DNA of 38,467 nucleotides from an uncultured Pseudomonadota bacterium (GTDB lineage: Bacteria; Pseudomonadota; Alphaproteobacteria; Rs-D84): positions 1 through 38,467 of the forward strand of contig CADBDF010000010.1 in assembly GCA_902793435.1 (NCBI GenBank). Reading direction: 5' to 3'. The notes beneath the pieces were generated by a model that was not told the DNA's origin, made no database searches, and saw only the letters and a list, made by a program, of their open reading frames with translations. The position numbers and the translations under genes are program-made. Below are positions 23,898-30,982 of this stretch, piece after piece (positions within the stretch are counted from its first letter, which is position 1; each line of letters starts with the position of its first letter).

Positions 23898-26330
23898 ATG
23901 AAACAATCCAAAACAACATTAAAAGAATTATCTGCATGTTATCGTGCGGTGTTGCGTCATGGTATTTTGTGTAATGCAATTGCGCTGGGGTTGGTTGCAA
24001 CACCATCGATGGCTAGTTATACATGGTGGCACCCAGAAAATATAAATTCGTATGAAACAATAAATGGGAATGTTTATAATACTGTTGGCAACTTTGACGA
24101 CATAACGACATACAATGTAATAACTGGAACGGCTATGCGTAATATCGTCACAAATGGTAATGTCAGTTTAACTGTTAATAATGTTCATCAAACTGGGACC
24201 AGTGAAATACATGGTGTTCATGGAAATGCGTTTTTTGTCAGCGATGCTATTGCAACCTTAGATGGTGCGGTTGTCCCAAATGACGAACAAAAAACTTTAC
24301 GTCAATTTATAAATGGTGATTTGTTATTAGATGTAAAAAATTCTACCGTCGATAGAAATGTGGTTGGAAATCAATTTTATGTTATTCCTGGAACAGAAAT
24401 AACTGGTGATATTGGATTGTCTGGAACAACAACTGTAAATGTCACAGATTCTATTGTCAAAGGAGATATTCGTGGCGCAAATATGGGTAATAATACAAGC
24501 GCTGATGATGAATCGTTATCAAAATTAAAGGTTAATGATATCATATTAAATATAACAAATTCATTAGTTGAAGACGAAGTTGTTTCTACTGGTGCATATG
24601 TATCGGCGCGTGATGTGACAATCAATGTGTCGGGAAATTCTGTTATTGGTTATACAGATATGAATGCACAAACACCTGTGGCGGGCGAAGATGGATGGAT
24701 TATTGCTGGGGCGCAAAGAAATGCCAGTAGTGTTAGAAATACCGAAATCAATTTGAATACAAATGGTGTTATTAATATTGCTGGTGATGTTAATGTCGGC
24801 AGTCGCCAGAGATCAACAAGCAACACCGATGAAAACAGTGTTAGTGGAAATGCAACATTGAATATGTTGGGTGGTGGTGATATCAATATCGGTGGTAATT
24901 TGCGTGCGTATCATGTTGCCGGCGATAAAACATTAAATATAAACAATGTGATTGCAAACGTTGGTGGCAATGTCCAAGAATTTCAAACAATAAACATGGA
25001 CGAAAATGCAACATTAAATGTTGATGGAACATTGACTTTGACGGCCGATGATAATGTGAATATTGTTTTACAAGATTTAAACACATACAGCAAAATTAAT
25101 GCAACGCAATTGGACGCAAATGGTGCAAATTTGAATTTCTTGGTATCCAAACAGGGCACCTATAATATTGTGCATGCCAATCAAACAATCAGTGATTTTA
25201 CATGGAATCCAGAAAACGCTTTGTTTGATTTTTCGCATAATAATGGGGTTTTGACGGCAACTGCGAAATCTGCGGATAAAATTGCTGAAACAACAAATAT
25301 AAATTCAAATGCGGCAAATACGGTGTCTGCGCTGGCGCACAGTGATAATGTGGACGCAAATCGTCTGTCATTGATTGCCCAAGATGCATTAACGCGCGGC
25401 GATACAAAATATGTTGAAAATGAATTGGAAAATTTAACGCCATCAAAATCGCCGGTTGCAACATCGGTTGCATTGGGTGTGCAAAGCCATGTTTTGTCTG
25501 CGGCGGGCGAGCGTATGTCGCTGGCCTTGACCGGTCGAAACGGTGGTGATGTTCATGCGGACTTTGGTGTCTGGGCCAAAGGTATGTATAACAAAACAAA
25601 GCACAGTGATTTATTAAATGCAAACACATGGGGGGCATCTGTTGGTTTCGATACAGATTTGAATCACAGTGTAATTTTAGGTGTGGGTTATTCATATGGT
25701 CAAACAGATGCGGATTTGAAAAATTCAAACATGGATATCGACAGCAACACAGTCTTTGTTTATGGACAATACAGAAATGCGGATTGGTTTATCAATGGCA
25801 CAATCGCATATATAATGTCTAAATACGATTGGAATAAATCTGCATTTGGCACAGATTTTAACACTGCGTATCATGTTAATTCTTTGTCGGAACAGGTTAT
25901 GGGTGGATATCATTTTGCAAACGGTATAACACCAACATTGGGATTGCGTTATTTAAATGTTAATCAAGATTCGTATTTTGATGGTTTGACAACTGTTGGC
26001 AAGGTTAATTCAACATATTTAACCGGTGTTGCAGGTGTTGATTATAAATACACATGGATTGCGCCATATACATCATTGTTCTGGAATCCTGAATTACATG
26101 CGGCGGTGACATATGATATGGTGTCTGATTCCAATATGGCAATCGTGATGATACCTGGTGCGGCGGCATATACTGTCGCAACAGATGATTTGTCGCGTGT
26201 TGGTGGTGAATTCGGTGTTGGATTATCTGCCGAATATTACTACCTGACCGTATCATTAAATTATGATTTAAATGTCCATCGTGATTTTACATCACAAACG
26301 GGTTCATTAAAAATCAAATATAAATTCTAA
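23898..26330 (+). CDS. Autotransporter (type Va) with a repetitive beta-helical passenger
   Basis: This is an 810-aa surface protein. An extended signal region (MKQSKTTLKELSACYRAVLR... to about residue 40, ending PSMAS) leads into a passenger of about 500 aa. The passenger is rich in N, T, V and G with short imperfect repeats such as VNVGSRQRS, NINVSGNSVI and ATLNVDGTLTL, typical of a parallel beta-helix. The C-terminal ~265 aa is the autotransporter barrel (PF03797-type), starting about VHADFGVWAKGMYN and ending IKYKF with the terminal Phe. The passenger has few charged motifs and no visible protease triad, so adhesion is more likely than proteolysis. AAAGGAG lies before ATG 23898. Confidence 0.88.
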   Translation: MKQSKTTLKELSACYRAVLRHGILCNAIALGLVATPSMASYTWWHPENINSYETINGNVYNTVGNFDDITTYNVITGTAMRNIVTNGNVSLTVNNVHQTGTSEIHGVHGNAFFVSDAIATLDGAVVPNDEQKTLRQFINGDLLLDVKNSTVDRNVVGNQFYVIPGTEITGDIGLSGTTTVNVTDSIVKGDIRGANMGNNTSADDESLSKLKVNDIILNITNSLVEDEVVSTGAYVSARDVTINVSGNSVIGYTDMNAQTPVAGEDGWIIAGAQRNASSVRNTEINLNTNGVINIAGDVNVGSRQRSTSNTDENSVSGNATLNMLGGGDINIGGNLRAYHVAGDKTLNINNVIANVGGNVQEFQTINMDENATLNVDGTLTLTADDNVNIVLQDLNTYSKINATQLDANGANLNFLVSKQGTYNIVHANQTISDFTWNPENALFDFSHNNGVLTATAKSADKIAETTNINSNAANTVSALAHSDNVDANRLSLIAQDALTRGDTKYVENELENLTPSKSPVATSVALGVQSHVLSAAGERMSLALTGRNGGDVHADFGVWAKGMYNKTKHSDLLNANTWGASVGFDTDLNHSVILGVGYSYGQTDADLKNSNMDIDSNTVFVYGQYRNADWFINGTIAYIMSKYDWNKSAFGTDFNTAYHVNSLSEQVMGGYHFANGITPTLGLRYLNVNQDSYFDGLTTVGKVNSTYLTGVAGVDYKYTWIAPYTSLFWNPELHAAVTYDMVSDSNMAIVMIPGAAAYTVATDDLSRVGGEFGVGLSAEYYYLTVSLNYDLNVHRDFTSQTGSLKIKYKF

Positions 26331-27449: not shown

Positions 27450-27491
27450 TGATAAAATGCCGGATTTTGTTGTTTTTTTTGTATAAAATAT

Positions 27492-27516
27492 CCCCCTTGT
27501 AAAAAATCACAGGGGG
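27492..27516 (-). terminator. Terminator of the AAA+/FtsK-gamma operon
   Basis: A GC-rich stem pairs CCCCC (27492-27496) with GGGGG (27512-27516), extended by TGT/ACA with one bulged base. It lies 48 nt beyond the operon's last stop codon and is followed on the minus strand by a T-rich stretch. Confidence 0.55.
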
Positions 27517-27563
27517 CATCAGTCAAAAACAAAAGGAGTTTAAAATGTTTTTGTGAAATTGTT

Positions 27564-28613
27564 TTAATCCAGACAAGATTTAAATATCTCGCGATATAAA
27601 ATTTTACCAAGCGCAGAATTTTGCCCTAATGAAAACCTTCTGGGGTTTGGGGTGTAATGTACATTGGGCAAATCTTGGGATAATTCTGGAATTAATTTTT
27701 GTAAAGTGACGGCGACCCCAGAACCCTTTTTTCCGCGAATAAATATGTGTTTGTCTGTATCATGAATAATATGTTTTACAAACTCTATTGCCATTGTGCT
27801 GGACGGCAATTTTCCATCTATAATCAGTTTTTCTAATTTTGGGTTCCAATCTCTTGAATGATATGGGCACAATTCGATATCACAAAATGTTTCTGCAATC
27901 ATGCGTCTAACAAAATTACTTGGCATGGATTTGTTAAATATTTGTATGTTTTTTCCAACATGTTTCAAACCAAATTTTGGCAGCCACCAATTTGCGCCAT
28001 CTGTGTTTTCTAACACTGGGTCCAAATAGTAAAATGGGAATGCGGTATGATTTTGGTTTGTGACATCATGGGCGATTTTTTGTAATAATTTATTTTGCCA
28101 ATTTTTATATTCTTGGGCATACGGTATTCCGGCGCGTGGATTTAATGTTAATATAAAACATTTTGCAGTTGCCAAATTTCCAACATATGGTTCGCATTGC
28201 AAGTTTGGGTGAATTTTGTTGCGCCCAGAATCTTTCTGTATTTCGGCATTTGAAATAATTAAGTTTGCTTTTTCTAATTCTTGGTATTCACCGTCCAAAA
28301 TACTGATTCCGTTGTAAAATTTTGCATTTCGCCAGAATTTAACAATTGGTAATTTATCCAAGATTTCTTGTTCGTGTTTTGTGTATTCTGCACTGGTTTT
28401 TTGCATTTCTGCGACGGTCGGCAAATCATGATACAATACGGTTCTTTTGCGATTTTCGTCCAATGGTGAAACAATGCCGTCTTGTTCCATCATGTTTAAT
28501 AAATCGACCGCGTCTTCATAACTGATGTCTAAATTGCGTTGCAGATAAGAAACACTTGGTTTTTTGTCTGTTATTACTAATTGTATTGCGTCTTGATAAA
28601 GTTTGTTTTTCAT
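27564..28613 (-). CDS. FtsK-gamma-like winged helix fused to a uracil-DNA-glycosylase-like domain
   Basis: The protein is 349 aa. Residues 4-50 closely follow the FtsK gamma winged helix: YQDAIQLVITDKKPSVSYLQ, then RNLDISYEDAVDLLNMMEQD and GIVSP; in FtsK this domain reads the KOPS DNA motif. No FtsK motor is present. The rest (about 95-349) shows TLNPRAG (156-162), FPFYYLDP, the pair ELCPYHS (247-253) and LPSSTMA (269-275), and TPNPRRFSLGQN (321-332). These resemble the spaced motifs of the uracil-DNA-glycosylase superfamily and of an uncharacterised family with FPYHS, but the assignment is tentative. It follows the tandem AAA+ gene by 18 nt with no terminator between, so the two are one operon. 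DNA recognition plus ATPase is inferred. Confidence 0.7.
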   Translation of the reverse strand: MKNKLYQDAIQLVITDKKPSVSYLQRNLDISYEDAVDLLNMMEQDGIVSPLDENRKRTVLYHDLPTVAEMQKTSAEYTKHEQEILDKLPIVKFWRNAKFYNGISILDGEYQELEKANLIISNAEIQKDSGRNKIHPNLQCEPYVGNLATAKCFILTLNPRAGIPYAQEYKNWQNKLLQKIAHDVTNQNHTAFPFYYLDPVLENTDGANWWLPKFGLKHVGKNIQIFNKSMPSNFVRRMIAETFCDIELCPYHSRDWNPKLEKLIIDGKLPSSTMAIEFVKHIIHDTDKHIFIRGKKGSGVAVTLQKLIPELSQDLPNVHYTPNPRRFSLGQNSALGKILYREIFKSCLD

Positions 28614-28631
28614 GTTTAGCCTCCATGTTGT

Positions 28632-30683
28632 TTAAAAACCAATTTTTTGCACGTTGTGTGATTTGACGGATTGTTCTTGTAATAACATGTCTAATAATTC
28701 GTCTGGATTTGTTATATCCAAAATTTCAGCCTTGTTTTTTACAACAACAAAATCCCCAGGAGCCAAATTGACACATTTTTTAATATCTGCATTATTAACA
28801 GTTTGACCAAAAAATTCGTTGAACGCAATTAAAACCTGTTTGGGCGTTAAAAAGTCGTATTTAACCTTGAATGTAAATCTGCGCAAAGATGCATTATCCA
28901 AAGAATCCATAATGTTTGTTGTGCATATGAACGGAAAATCGGCTTGTTCCATCTGGGTCAGCATTTCATTGACAGAACTAACCTCCCATGAACGTTGCGC
29001 TTTGTTGCGGTCTTGTAAAAAAGAATCTGCTTCGTCAAAAACCAGAATTGCTTTTTTTGAACGCGCCTCGGCAAAAGCATTTGCAATATTTTTTTCGGTT
29101 TCCCCAACATAAGAACCTTTTAAATCGCTGGCGCGTTTTTTGACGATTGGCATGCCCAACACATGCGCCAAATGTGATGCAAATGCGGTTTTTCCAGTTC
29201 CCGGTGCGCCGTATAAACATAACGAAAATTTATGAAGTTTTTTCTTGGCAATTCTGTCTGCCAACATATTTAAATCTGTGTCGGTGTTTAATAATTCTGT
29301 ATTAAAATTATCAGGTTTTATTTCGTCTTTCTTCTTGCGACCATGCAGTGTTTCCAAAAAAGAATTCAAGGTATATGGGACCATATCTGGATTTCCTGTA
29401 ATTTCTGCATTTCTAACCGCGTTATCTAAAATTCCCAATGGCACATCAGGTTCTTTAATATCTTGTGCCATTTTTTCATAGTCAAATTGAACATTGTGTT
29501 TTTTAAATACACCTGCCCACACATCTTTTCTGCTGTCTTCATCTGGGGTTGAAATTTCTGCGGTCAAAGAAAATCTGCGCAAACAAGAATTTGGAATATC
29601 GCGTATGCTATGCACAACCCAAATCACAGGTGTTGAATTGTTTTCTAACAATCTGTGCAAAGTTAATTTTTCGTTGTTTCGTCCAGGAAATCTATCTTGT
29701 TCCAAAATATCTTCGGCATCATCAAACAATAATATCGCATTGGAATCTGCGTGTAGTAATTTTTGCATTTGTTTTAATTTGTTGCGTCTGGCGTCAGTAC
29801 TGGTTTCGTTTCCACATCCAGAATACAAACGTAAATTTGCATCATTGCACAATGCGATTGCAAAAGATGTTTTTCCAGCACCGACCGCGCCATGTAGTAA
29901 AATATTTACACCGCGAATTTTTGATTGAACAGATTTTTGCAACAGTGTTTTAATGTTTTTAAAAGTGTCAGCCATATGTAGAAAATTATCAATATGTAAA
30001 TCGTTTGACAAAGATTCACCAATCAACGCAACGCGGACTTCTTCGGTGGATTTAAAACGCGTGCGCAGTAATTTTATAAAACCGTCATGCAGACGTATTG
30101 AATCATATTTTTGTGTTAAAATATTCATTTCAAACATGGCGGTGTTTGGTTCCAACATCTGTTTTACTGTTCCCAAAGGTATGGCGCACATGGCGGCAAA
30201 GAAAGGGAAGTTTTCTTCGCAAATCATATCGTCCATTAACGGGATATCAAACGATTCTAACATTTCTCGCAACATAGGATTTTTTTGTGCCATTAAAAAA
30301 CATTGAACCAATACTCGTTGTTGTTGGGATAAATTCAACACATCAAAAACCATAGATAACTTTTTATCAAATTCAGGATTTGTTATATCTGTGATTTTTA
30401 CTTTTGATTTAATATCTTCGATTATTTTTTCTGTGTCTGGCGAAATGTTTTCCACAGAGCATTTTTCTTTATTATTTAAAATGTCGCGCAACACAGATAT
30501 TTTTTCGGCATCTGTCACCGTTTCAGGCAAAGATGTTAATAGGTTATGTATGTCTGTATTAAACAACAAAGTAAAATACCGTTCCAACCGTTCCAGAAAA
30601 CAAAATTCTGTCAAAGGTTGCAAAGGACTATTTACCAAGTTTTTTAAATAAAACGCATTTGCTTGCAATTGTTTATCCGTCAT
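28632..30683 (-). CDS. Tandem AAA+ ATPase (two AAA modules)
   Basis: This 683-aa protein has an unrecognised helical N-terminal region (1-250) followed by two AAA+ modules. Module 1 has Walker A GAVGAGKT (265-272), Walker B ILLFDDAED (317-325, with D in place of the usual catalytic E) and RRF (369-371). Module 2 has Walker A GAPGTGKT (492-499), Walker B ILVFDEAD (546-553), sensor-1 TTN (588-590) and the arginine finger RRF (601-603). Module 2 looks fully active; module 1 may be slow or regulatory. The architecture is Cdc48/p97-like, suggesting a remodelling or unfolding ring. The start codon is preceded by GGGAGG. It is the first gene of a two-gene operon. Confidence 0.88.
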   Translation of the reverse strand: MTDKQLQANAFYLKNLVNSPLQPLTEFCFLERLERYFTLLFNTDIHNLLTSLPETVTDAEKISVLRDILNNKEKCSVENISPDTEKIIEDIKSKVKITDITNPEFDKKLSMVFDVLNLSQQQRVLVQCFLMAQKNPMLREMLESFDIPLMDDMICEENFPFFAAMCAIPLGTVKQMLEPNTAMFEMNILTQKYDSIRLHDGFIKLLRTRFKSTEEVRVALIGESLSNDLHIDNFLHMADTFKNIKTLLQKSVQSKIRGVNILLHGAVGAGKTSFAIALCNDANLRLYSGCGNETSTDARRNKLKQMQKLLHADSNAILLFDDAEDILEQDRFPGRNNEKLTLHRLLENNSTPVIWVVHSIRDIPNSCLRRFSLTAEISTPDEDSRKDVWAGVFKKHNVQFDYEKMAQDIKEPDVPLGILDNAVRNAEITGNPDMVPYTLNSFLETLHGRKKKDEIKPDNFNTELLNTDTDLNMLADRIAKKKLHKFSLCLYGAPGTGKTAFASHLAHVLGMPIVKKRASDLKGSYVGETEKNIANAFAEARSKKAILVFDEADSFLQDRNKAQRSWEVSSVNEMLTQMEQADFPFICTTNIMDSLDNASLRRFTFKVKYDFLTPKQVLIAFNEFFGQTVNNADIKKCVNLAPGDFVVVKNKAEILDITNPDELLDMLLQEQSVKSHNVQKIGF

Positions 30684-30743
30684 ACGCGCCTCCCTGTGTG
30701 TTTTTTTGATTAAAATTGTTCTTGAATCTTTCGATTCGATATG

Positions 30744-30749
30744 ATTATA
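30744..30749 (-). promoter_or_regulatory. -10 box of the AAA+ operon
   Basis: On the minus strand a perfect TATAAT lies 60 nt before the ATG. The expected -35 position (30767-30772) has no good hexamer (CCAATT) and is covered by the palindrome at 30758-30778. Confidence 0.5.
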
Positions 30750-30757
30750 AGAACCTG

Positions 30758-30778
30758 ATTGGACAAAATTGGTCCAAT
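30758..30778. promoter_or_regulatory. Perfect 21-bp palindrome at the -35 position (candidate operator)
   Basis: The arms ATTGGAC and GTCCAAT are perfect inverted repeats around a 7-nt spacer. The palindrome ends 8 nt upstream of the -10 box of the AAA+ operon. This position and geometry fit a dimeric regulator binding over the -35 region. No regulator gene is adjacent, so the protein would act in trans. Confidence 0.6.
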
Positions 30779-30838: not shown

Positions 30839-30841
30839 TAA

Positions 30842-30982
30842 TTATTTTGATAACATAAAAAATCTGGCTTTCAGTTTTTTATATGCGGCGCGGACCTTGT
30901 CGTATTGTTCTTTGATTTCAAAATATTTGATGTTTGCCGCGCGATTGCAACAATCACAATCATAATTGCATGGCGCCAACAA
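30842..30982 (-). CDS. Candidate small Cys-rich protein (46 aa)
   Basis: I see an open frame ending with LKARFFMLSK, with four cysteines near the N-terminus (PCNYDCDCC) and a helical, basic C-terminus containing KYFEIKEQYDKVRAAYKKL. There is no ATG; TTG at 30982 is the likely start and no clear ribosome-binding site precedes it, so the call is weak. Support comes from a terminator just beyond the stop and from a similar pattern in the 133-aa protein at 32829-33230: a Cys cluster, then YF..K, then VR..A, then a basic end. It could be a shortened paralog, or a decayed gene. Confidence 0.35.
   Translation of the reverse strand: MLAPCNYDCDCCNRAANIKYFEIKEQYDKVRAAYKKLKARFFMLSK

What the first reader, a model, noticed from the sequence alone, without database searches (positions are those of the whole stretch)
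27564..30778. Two-gene operon: tandem AAA+ ATPase plus an FtsK-gamma/glycosylase-like protein under a palindromic operator
Seen: minus-strand genes 28632-30683 (two Walker A/B modules) and 27564-28613, 18 nt apart, no terminator between, a 21-bp perfect palindrome at the -35 position, and a terminator-like stem after the second stop. The second protein carries an FtsK gamma DNA-reading domain without any FtsK motor. Known: gamma domains bind polar DNA motifs; tandem AAA+ rings remodel protein or DNA complexes. Inference: a DNA-locating subunit and an ATPase ring, switched on under specific conditions, could act in chromosome maintenance, DNA repair or anti-phage defence. I know no described system with this pairing.
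Basis: partly seen in the sequence, partly recalled or inferred. Interest (0 to 1): 0.72.

Follow-up and report, generated by a model that had tools for sequence, protein, structure and literature searches.

The report
DNA-damage-switched AAA+/glycosylase defence operon
Two adjacent bacterial genes, which look to be switched on when single-stranded or damaged DNA appears, encode a protein-unfolding motor and a partner built from a DNA-base-removing enzyme fused to a piece of the cell-division motor FtsK; the pair looks like an unrecorded form of immunity against viruses with modified DNA.

Summary
The operon is real. Gene 1 (28632-30683, minus) is a double-ring Cdc48/Rix7-like AAA+ ATPase. Gene 2 (27564-28613, minus) joins an FtsK-gamma-derived domain (Pfam E 1e-18) to a C-terminal domain related to the anti-phage DNA glycosylase Brig1. 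The pair occurs in 2 of 142 genomes of the order; the ATPase family is much wider.

Three points change the picture. (1) The gamma domain is unlikely to read DNA as FtsK does: the residues that read KOPS are replaced by acidic or neutral ones, while all 29 neighbouring FtsKs examined keep their own set. (2) The palindrome is not a perfect 21-mer (7-bp arms, 7-nt spacer) but is a genuine, genus-wide operator, GAC-N7-GTC, usually at a fixed distance from a -10 box. This matches DriD, an ssDNA-activated WYL activator; a DriD homologue elsewhere in the genome carries the same site before its own gene. (3) Between two species the catalytic segment (about residues 173-338) is 36% divergent inside flanks that differ by 6%: an allelic swap.

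Neighbours of the ATPase family are defence-rich (198 PADLOC models matched, 2 in controls).

Best reading: an inducible Brig-type base-excision anti-phage module with an AAA+ partner. Function is untested.

The parts
28632..30683 (-). Gene 1: 683-aa double AAA+ ATPase (helical N-terminal region about 1-230; D1 about 231-450 with Walker A GAVGAGKT 265-272 and Walker B LLFDDAED, the catalytic Glu being Asp here; D2 about 470-683 with GAPGTGKT, LVFDEAD, arginine finger RRF, and a YVG pore-loop-1-like motif)
   Evidence: alignment of 14 relatives; AF2 model; Foldseek best hits Rix7, NVL, Cdc48
27564..28613 (-). Gene 2: 349-aa FtsK-gamma/Brig1-like fusion protein, 18 nt downstream of gene 1
28431..28607 (-). 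FtsK-gamma-derived domain (residues 3-61) with a rewritten, acidic recognition helix
   Evidence: PF09397 E 1.1e-18; 48% identical to the genome's own FtsK; residue comparison with 29 FtsKs
27567..28346 (-). Brig1-like glycosylase domain (residues about 90-349); motifs PYVGNL..A...LNPRAG (N158), YLDP...WW (W210), IELCPYHS (E247, Y251, S253), LPSS (S271)
27602..28097 (-). Segment replaced by recombination relative to RUG14746 (best two-state fit, residues 173-338; 36% nt divergence inside, 6% outside)
30758..30778 (-). DriD-type WYL operator ATTGGAC-N7-GTCCAAT (core GGACCANNTTTGTCC at 30761-30775)
   Evidence: DriD consensus ATACGAC-N7-GTCGTAT in PMC12340889
30744..30749 (-). -10 box TATAAT, 11 nt after the operator core
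27488..27520 (-). Stem-loop after the gene 2 stop, probable terminator
   Evidence: the stem is also kept in RUG14746

Best explanation
A DNA-damage/ssDNA-inducible anti-phage operon. Step 1 (inferred from the operator): when phage replication or DNA attack produces ssDNA, a DriD-like WYL activator, encoded elsewhere in the genome, binds ATTGGAC-N7-GTCCAAT over the -35 position and recruits RNA polymerase to the operon, as DriD does in Caulobacter. Step 2 (inferred from homology): the C-terminal domain of the 349-aa protein is a Brig1-type DNA glycosylase that cuts out a modified base from invading DNA and leaves abasic sites. Step 3 (inferred from fold and co-transcription): the Cdc48/Rix7-like double-ring ATPase, an unfoldase or remodeller rather than a DNA motor, acts with it, most likely by stripping proteins off the target DNA or by loading or releasing the glycosylase; the FtsK-derived gamma domain, which has lost its KOPS-reading residues, serves as a protein-binding adaptor. 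The catalytic segment is exchanged between strains while the gamma domain and the ATPase stay, as expected if the target base changes during an arms race.
For: Brig1 relation: direct NCBIfam Brig1 hit on residues 129-261, E 3.5e-4; stand-alone homologues L079, L081, L082 and Brig1-like L086 each match Brig1 as their only NCBIfam family (E 4e-4 to 2e-3) and Brig1-like L083 at 2.7e-8; hhalign of the homologue family against the Brig1-like set Prob 98.8%, E 4.8e-17, leave-out repeat 98.7% and 98.2% against at most 0.4% for three unrelated control proteins; N158, W210, E247, P250, Y251, S253, S271 unchanged in nine divergent sequences. Regulation: operator at most 2 mismatches upstream of 12/17 ATPase genes; 25 exact genome sites against 0 for the reversed pattern; 9/15 ATPase genomes against 4/120 others, P 1e-7; TATAAT-like box at the same 11-nt offset in 16 of 30 sites; in G000 and in G032 one exact site lies 28 bp upstream of a WYL gene; that G000 WYL protein has DriD as a top structural relative, E about 6e-18. 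Defence context: 198 PADLOC families among 90 neighbours of the wider ATPase family, 7 of the neighbours WYL, against 2 families and no WYL among 90 control genes from the same genomes; in G074 the same operator precedes McrBC with an EVE domain. Arms race: segmental replacement of the catalytic part. Unfoldase: Cdc48-family profile and fold hits.
Against: The domain scores about 20 bits on the Brig1 model, against a cut-off of 230; its own AF2 model failed (pLDDT below 35 in this region), so the fold is not shown. The pairing is known from two closely related species only. The operator-WYL link is by pattern and analogy. No phage, plasmid or viral contig held a homologue of the glycosylase part close enough to suggest a target. 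The DriD regulon in Caulobacter serves DNA damage, so a repair role is not excluded.
Confidence: 0.55

Rival explanations
1. A DNA-damage repair operon: a glycosylase for endogenous or stress-induced base lesions with an AAA+ partner, induced by a DriD-like damage response, with no role in immunity.
For: The DriD-type promoter and DriD-like regulator point to a DNA-damage regulon; Caulobacter DriD controls bapE, recJ and dnaG (PMC12340889); one ATPase locus lies next to RecCBD genes (L059).
Against: Found in 2 of 142 genomes, whereas a core repair function would be expected more widely; swapped catalytic segment; the wider ATPase family sits among defence genes; the nearest named relative of the catalytic domain is an anti-phage enzyme.
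Confidence: 0.22
2. One reading: the gamma domain reads a polar DNA motif and guides the ATPase or the catalytic domain to chromosomal positions.
For: The domain is a true FtsK gamma relative, 48% identical to the host's own.
Against: The residues used for KOPS are replaced (N to E33, K to D34, E to N40, R to M41 against 29/29, 29/29, 29/29 and 28/29 FtsKs) and the recognition helix goes from about 0 to -4. XerD binding uses the same surface (PMC5052618), so it is probably lost as well. A new DNA specificity is not excluded.
Confidence: 0.1
3. The ATPase is the defence protein on its own (IetA-like), and the glycosylase-like gene is a passenger that happens to lie downstream.
For: ATPase genes occur without any glycosylase in most loci; D2 matches PADLOC IetA, E 1.5e-30.
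Against: The two genes are 18 nt apart, without a terminator, and both are kept intact under purifying selection in two species (omega 0.08 and, over saturated sites, about 0.17). In G141 a different, genuine UDG-family gene follows the same ATPase and a DUF2779 gene, with gaps of 46 and 3 nt.
Confidence: 0.13

Closest known systems
Brig1 / Brig3 anti-phage DNA glycosylases (PMC11078745; PMC13160076, preprint)
   Same: Catalytic domain related by profile comparison; conserved Asn-Pro motif (Brig3 N50-P51) and an acidic residue in a later strand motif (Brig1 E147, Brig3 D127; here E247, equivalence inferred, not solved); some Brig genes are in two-gene operons (brig3-bapA).
   Different: Very divergent (about 20 bits against a cut-off of 230); fused to an FtsK gamma domain; partnered with a double-ring AAA+ ATPase; WYL/DriD-type control. 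None of these is described for Brig proteins in the two papers read; the Brig3 paper contains neither 'AAA' nor 'ATPase'.
Cdc48/p97, Rix7/NVL type double-ring AAA+ ATPases
   Same: Two AAA+ modules in tandem, Walker A/B, arginine fingers, aromatic pore-loop motif in D2; best Foldseek and profile matches.
   Different: Bacterial, with an unrelated helical N-terminal region; D1 Walker B glutamate is Asp in the window protein; identity under about 20%.
DriD (Caulobacter WYL activator) promoters (PMC12340889, preprint)
   Same: Pseudo-palindrome of the form NNNNGAC-N7-GTCNNNN over the -35 position, constant distance to the -10, weak -35; the WYL protein of this genome has DriD (8tp8) among its top PDB matches.
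   Different: Arm sequence differs (ATTGGAC against ATACGAC); the regulator gene is unlinked to the operon in this genome; in most relatives it is divergent and adjacent.
CapW and BrxR (WYL regulators of CBASS and BREX; PMC9122588, PMC9122601, PMC9122589)
   Same: WYL regulators attached to anti-phage genes.
   Different: The fixed -10 spacing and absent -35 found here fit an activator better.
IetAS defence system (IetA ATPase plus IetS)
   Same: AAA+ ATPase; D2 matches the PADLOC IetA models at E 1.5e-30.
   Different: Single-module 330-395 aa models against a tandem 683-aa protein; no subtilisin-type protease partner seen.
FtsK / SpoIIIE
   Same: Gamma domain, evidently derived from a host-type FtsK.
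   Different: No motor, no membrane part, KOPS residues lost.

Membership tests
Brig1 anti-phage DNA glycosylase | Score over the NCBIfam NF047634 equivalog cut-off (230 bits) | tested here: not met
   20.1 bits, E 3.5e-4. It is a distant homologue, not a Brig1.
Brig1 anti-phage DNA glycosylase | Homology of the catalytic domain by profile methods | tested here: met
   hhalign 98.8%, E 4.8e-17, to Brig1-like proteins, with unrelated controls at most 0.4% in the leave-out test; family members match Brig1 alone in NCBIfam
Brig1 anti-phage DNA glycosylase | Catalytic Asn-Pro and acidic residue (Brig3 N50, D127; Brig1 E147) | tested here: inconclusive
   N158-P159 and E247 are kept in the aligned set, but equivalence to the Brig numbering was not shown on a structure
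Brig1 anti-phage DNA glycosylase | Excises a modified base; protects from phage | not testable with these tools
   needs enzyme and plaque assays
Uracil-DNA glycosylase superfamily (PF03167) | Pfam match | tested here: not met
   no PF03167 hit; hhalign to a genuine UDG only 2.5%, on the first motif. The superfamily link runs through Brig1 only.
FtsK | FtsK_gamma domain | tested here: met
   PF09397, E 1.1e-18
FtsK | RecA-like motor domain | tested here: not met
   no PF01580 in the protein
FtsK | KOPS-reading residues (E. coli N1296, R1300, E1303) | tested here: not met
   E33, D37, N40 here; N and E invariant in 29 FtsKs; function of the residues from PMC2533119
Double-ring (type II) AAA+ ATPase, Cdc48-like | Two AAA+ modules with Walker A, Walker B and arginine finger | tested here: met
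   D1 Walker B is D-D instead of D-E
Double-ring (type II) AAA+ ATPase, Cdc48-like | Hexameric unfoldase activity | not testable with these tools
   aromatic pore loop YVG in D2 is suggestive only
IetAS | IetA ATPase next to an IetS protease | tested here: not met
   no protease neighbour; D2 match covers one module only
DriD-type WYL-activated promoter | GAC-N7-GTC pseudo-palindrome over the -35 | tested here: met
DriD-type WYL-activated promoter | Constant distance from operator to -10 | tested here: met
   offset 11 nt in 16 of 30 sites, window included
DriD-type WYL-activated promoter | Bound and activated by a WYL protein with ssDNA | not testable with these tools
   a DriD homologue with the same site before its gene exists in the genome

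The most novel reading that the evidence does not exclude
An ATP-powered base-excision immune complex: a Cdc48-like unfoldase carries a glycosylase through a repurposed FtsK gamma adaptor, clears proteins from modified phage DNA so that the glycosylase can reach its base, and changes target by swapping only the catalytic segment, the whole being switched on by an ssDNA-sensing DriD-like activator.
Probability: 0.25. Interest if true: 0.82.

Novelty: new variant of a known kind. Interest (0 to 1): 0.62.

Why it matters
If right, it adds a second architecture to glycosylase-based immunity, in which base excision is tied to an AAA+ machine. It suggests a concrete rule for re-targeting (swap the catalytic segment, keep adaptor and motor). 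It also offers a case in which an ssDNA-sensing WYL activator of the DriD type would control an immune operon. It makes a directly testable link between two separate fields: the non-SOS DNA-damage response of alphaproteobacteria and immunity to phages with modified bases. It also shows an FtsK gamma domain reused after losing its DNA-reading residues.

Tried and rejected
Searches for more relatives of the C-terminal domain in viral contigs and phage records: none. Profile of the C-terminal family against PDB sequences: none. Brig1 model over 349 genomes of the phylum at E 1e-4: none, so no bona fide Brig1 sequence was available for direct alignment. Claim that the 524-aa protein next to the ATPase in G074 is a UDG: rejected as unproven; only the first motif resembles it (hhalign 2.3%). 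Reading of the palindrome as a repressor site: considered (CapW, BrxR); disfavoured because of the fixed -10 distance and missing -35. Reading of the site as a chance repeat: rejected by conservation. Idea that the catalytic part diverges by fast selection alone: rejected, because synonymous sites are saturated there (pS about 0.75) but not in the flanks (0.1-0.3), which means replacement, not accelerated change.
Full report
What is there. The window is contig C10 of a small genome (0.9 Mb, 98% complete), whose nearest relative found is the uncultured proteobacterium MAG RUG14746. On the minus strand, gene 1 (28632-30683, 683 aa) and gene 2 (27564-28613, 349 aa) are 18 nt apart. Gene 1 has two AAA+ modules. 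Gene 2 has an FtsK gamma domain at residues 3-61 (PF09397, E 1.1e-18) and no FtsK motor. A stable stem-loop follows. The palindrome is ATTGGAC-N7-GTCCAAT, not a perfect 21-mer.

Distribution. Of 142 genomes of the order only G000 and G032 carry gene 2 at full length; the other hits are the gamma domains of FtsK itself. Gene 1 has full-length or near full-length relatives in about 17 of the 142, in 42 of 398 genomes of the phylum and in six viral contigs. The ATPase is therefore the old, wide component and the glycosylase-like gene a local partner. Elsewhere the ATPase has other partners in the same direction: a DUF2779/Cas4-like gene followed by a genuine UDG (PF03167, E 7.6e-11) in G141 (gaps 46 and 3 nt), a DUF2779-like gene in G062, a 524-aa DUF6994 protein in G074, or none. 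G000 itself holds a second, broken ATPase copy on C3 with a DUF2779-like gene nearby.

What the C-terminal domain is. Pfam is silent. NCBIfam gives the anti-phage glycosylase Brig1 at E 3.5e-4 over residues 129-261. Stand-alone homologues without gamma exist in two alphaproteobacterial genomes, a Rhizobium plasmid and Variovorax plasmids. All but the Variovorax one match Brig1 as their only NCBIfam family, and a Brig1-like protein of the same genus (L083) does so at 2.7e-8. Profile-profile comparison joins the two sets (98.8%, E 4.8e-17; leave-out 98.7% and 98.2%, three unrelated controls at most 0.4%). N158, W210, E247, P250, Y251, S253 and S271 are unchanged in nine divergent sequences. This shows homology, not activity. 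Brig1 and Brig3 act by excising modified cytosines from T-even phage DNA (PMC11078745, PMC13160076).

What the gamma domain is. It is evidently derived from a host-type FtsK (DKKPSVSYLQR against DKKPTISYLQR), 48% identical to the genome's own. E. coli FtsK reads KOPS with N1296, R1300 and E1303 (PMC2533119), and the XerD contact uses the same surface (PMC5052618). All 29 FtsKs compared keep the N, K and E, and 28 the R; this protein has E33, D34, N40, M41, plus D37 at the R1300 position. Net charge of the domain is -3 against +2 to +4. KOPS reading is therefore unlikely. An adaptor role is inferred.

What the ATPase is. Its profile and its predicted model match Cdc48, Rix7 and NVL, double-ring unfoldases; the model is of middling quality (pLDDT 61.8), and low TM-scores reflect uncertain ring orientation. 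D2 has all catalytic motifs and an aromatic pore-loop motif; D1 has FDDAED in place of FDEAED in the window protein and its RUG14746 orthologue. An unfolding or remodelling role is inferred.

How it is switched. The core GGACCANNTTTGTCC lies upstream of 12 of 17 ATPase genes with at most 2 mismatches, though those ATPases are only 35-45% identical. In 135 genomes there are 25 exact sites against none for the reversed pattern; 9 of 15 genomes with the ATPase have one against 4 of 120 others (P 1e-7). A TATAAT-like box follows at the same 11-nt offset in 16 of 30 sites, with no good -35. This is the anatomy of DriD promoters (ATACGAC-N7-GTCGTAT, over the -35, constant distance to the -10; PMC12340889, preprint) and, in spacing, of mycobacterial PafBC promoters (tTGTCRgtg-8 nt-TannnT; PMC5656591). 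Most ATPase loci of the genus have a WYL gene next to them, usually divergent. The window locus has none, but G000 and G032 each have one WYL gene elsewhere with the exact site 28 bp in front; the G000 one has DriD among its top PDB matches (E about 7e-18). DriD and PafBC are activated by ssDNA. So control in trans by a DriD-like activator is the best inference; binding is not shown.

Signs of an arms race. Against RUG14746, gene 1, the gamma half of gene 2 and the downstream gene differ little (pS mostly 0.1-0.4), but the rest of gene 2 has pS about 0.75. The best two-state fit puts 36% nucleotide divergence in residues 173-338 and 6% outside; gain 77 log units against at most 8 in 60 permutations. 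A catalytic segment has been exchanged inside an otherwise orthologous gene.

Defence context. Ninety neighbours of the wider ATPase family match 198 PADLOC families, with seven WYL proteins, SspE, HEC-06 and others; Pfam adds SIR2 and GmrSD. Ninety genes taken elsewhere in the same genomes match two PADLOC families and show no WYL in the Pfam table printed. These are family counts, and several models can match one protein. In G074 the same operator also precedes an McrBC pair whose McrB has an EVE domain, a modified-DNA restriction system by family knowledge.

Verdict. The operon is best read as an inducible, Brig-type base-excision anti-phage module with an AAA+ partner and a repurposed FtsK gamma adaptor. 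Shown: anatomy, homologies, conserved operator, swapped segment, defence-rich surroundings of the ATPase family. Inferred: glycosylase activity, phage target, ATPase role, adaptor role, WYL control. A damage-repair role is the main rival.

Noticed in passing
window 23898-26330: Autotransporter whose passenger part is only 45-51% identical to the RUG14746 orthologue over alignment columns 101-300, while the C-terminal half is 96-99% identical: a second locally replaced or fast-changing segment, 1.3 kb from the operon.
   Followed up: partly
window about 30840-30951; L058 10890-12841: Remnant of the 3' end of a 161-aa gene; RUG14746 has the whole gene plus a divergent 470-aa gene here, both missing in the window, so the operon's upstream flank has been deleted or inserted.
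   Followed up: partly
L074 7635-9082 (G000 C3): Second tandem-ATPase copy in the same genome, broken into pieces, with a DUF2779-like gene downstream and a WYL gene with the operator nearby.
   Followed up: partly
L176 4116-4421, L182 4014-4373, L173 3958-4311, L177 2746-2928, L171 5383-5940: The operator also stands in front of small genes of unknown function; L176 and L182 are homologous (MTYRR..YDGF / MTYRR..YYNG type). Probably further members of the WYL regulon.
   Followed up: no
L178 4050, L179 6356: Exact operator sites about 200 bp upstream of a topoisomerase subunit gene (parC-like, 743 aa), without a clear -10 at the usual place.
   Followed up: no
L061 11075-11836, L062 12676-13686: Short FtsK/SpoIIIE motor genes lie beside the ATPase loci in two genomes; together with the gamma domain in gene 2 this hints at repeated recruitment of FtsK parts.
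   Followed up: partly
L059 1-8424: In G118 the ATPase gene lies directly upstream of RecC/RecB-type genes in the same direction.
   Followed up: no
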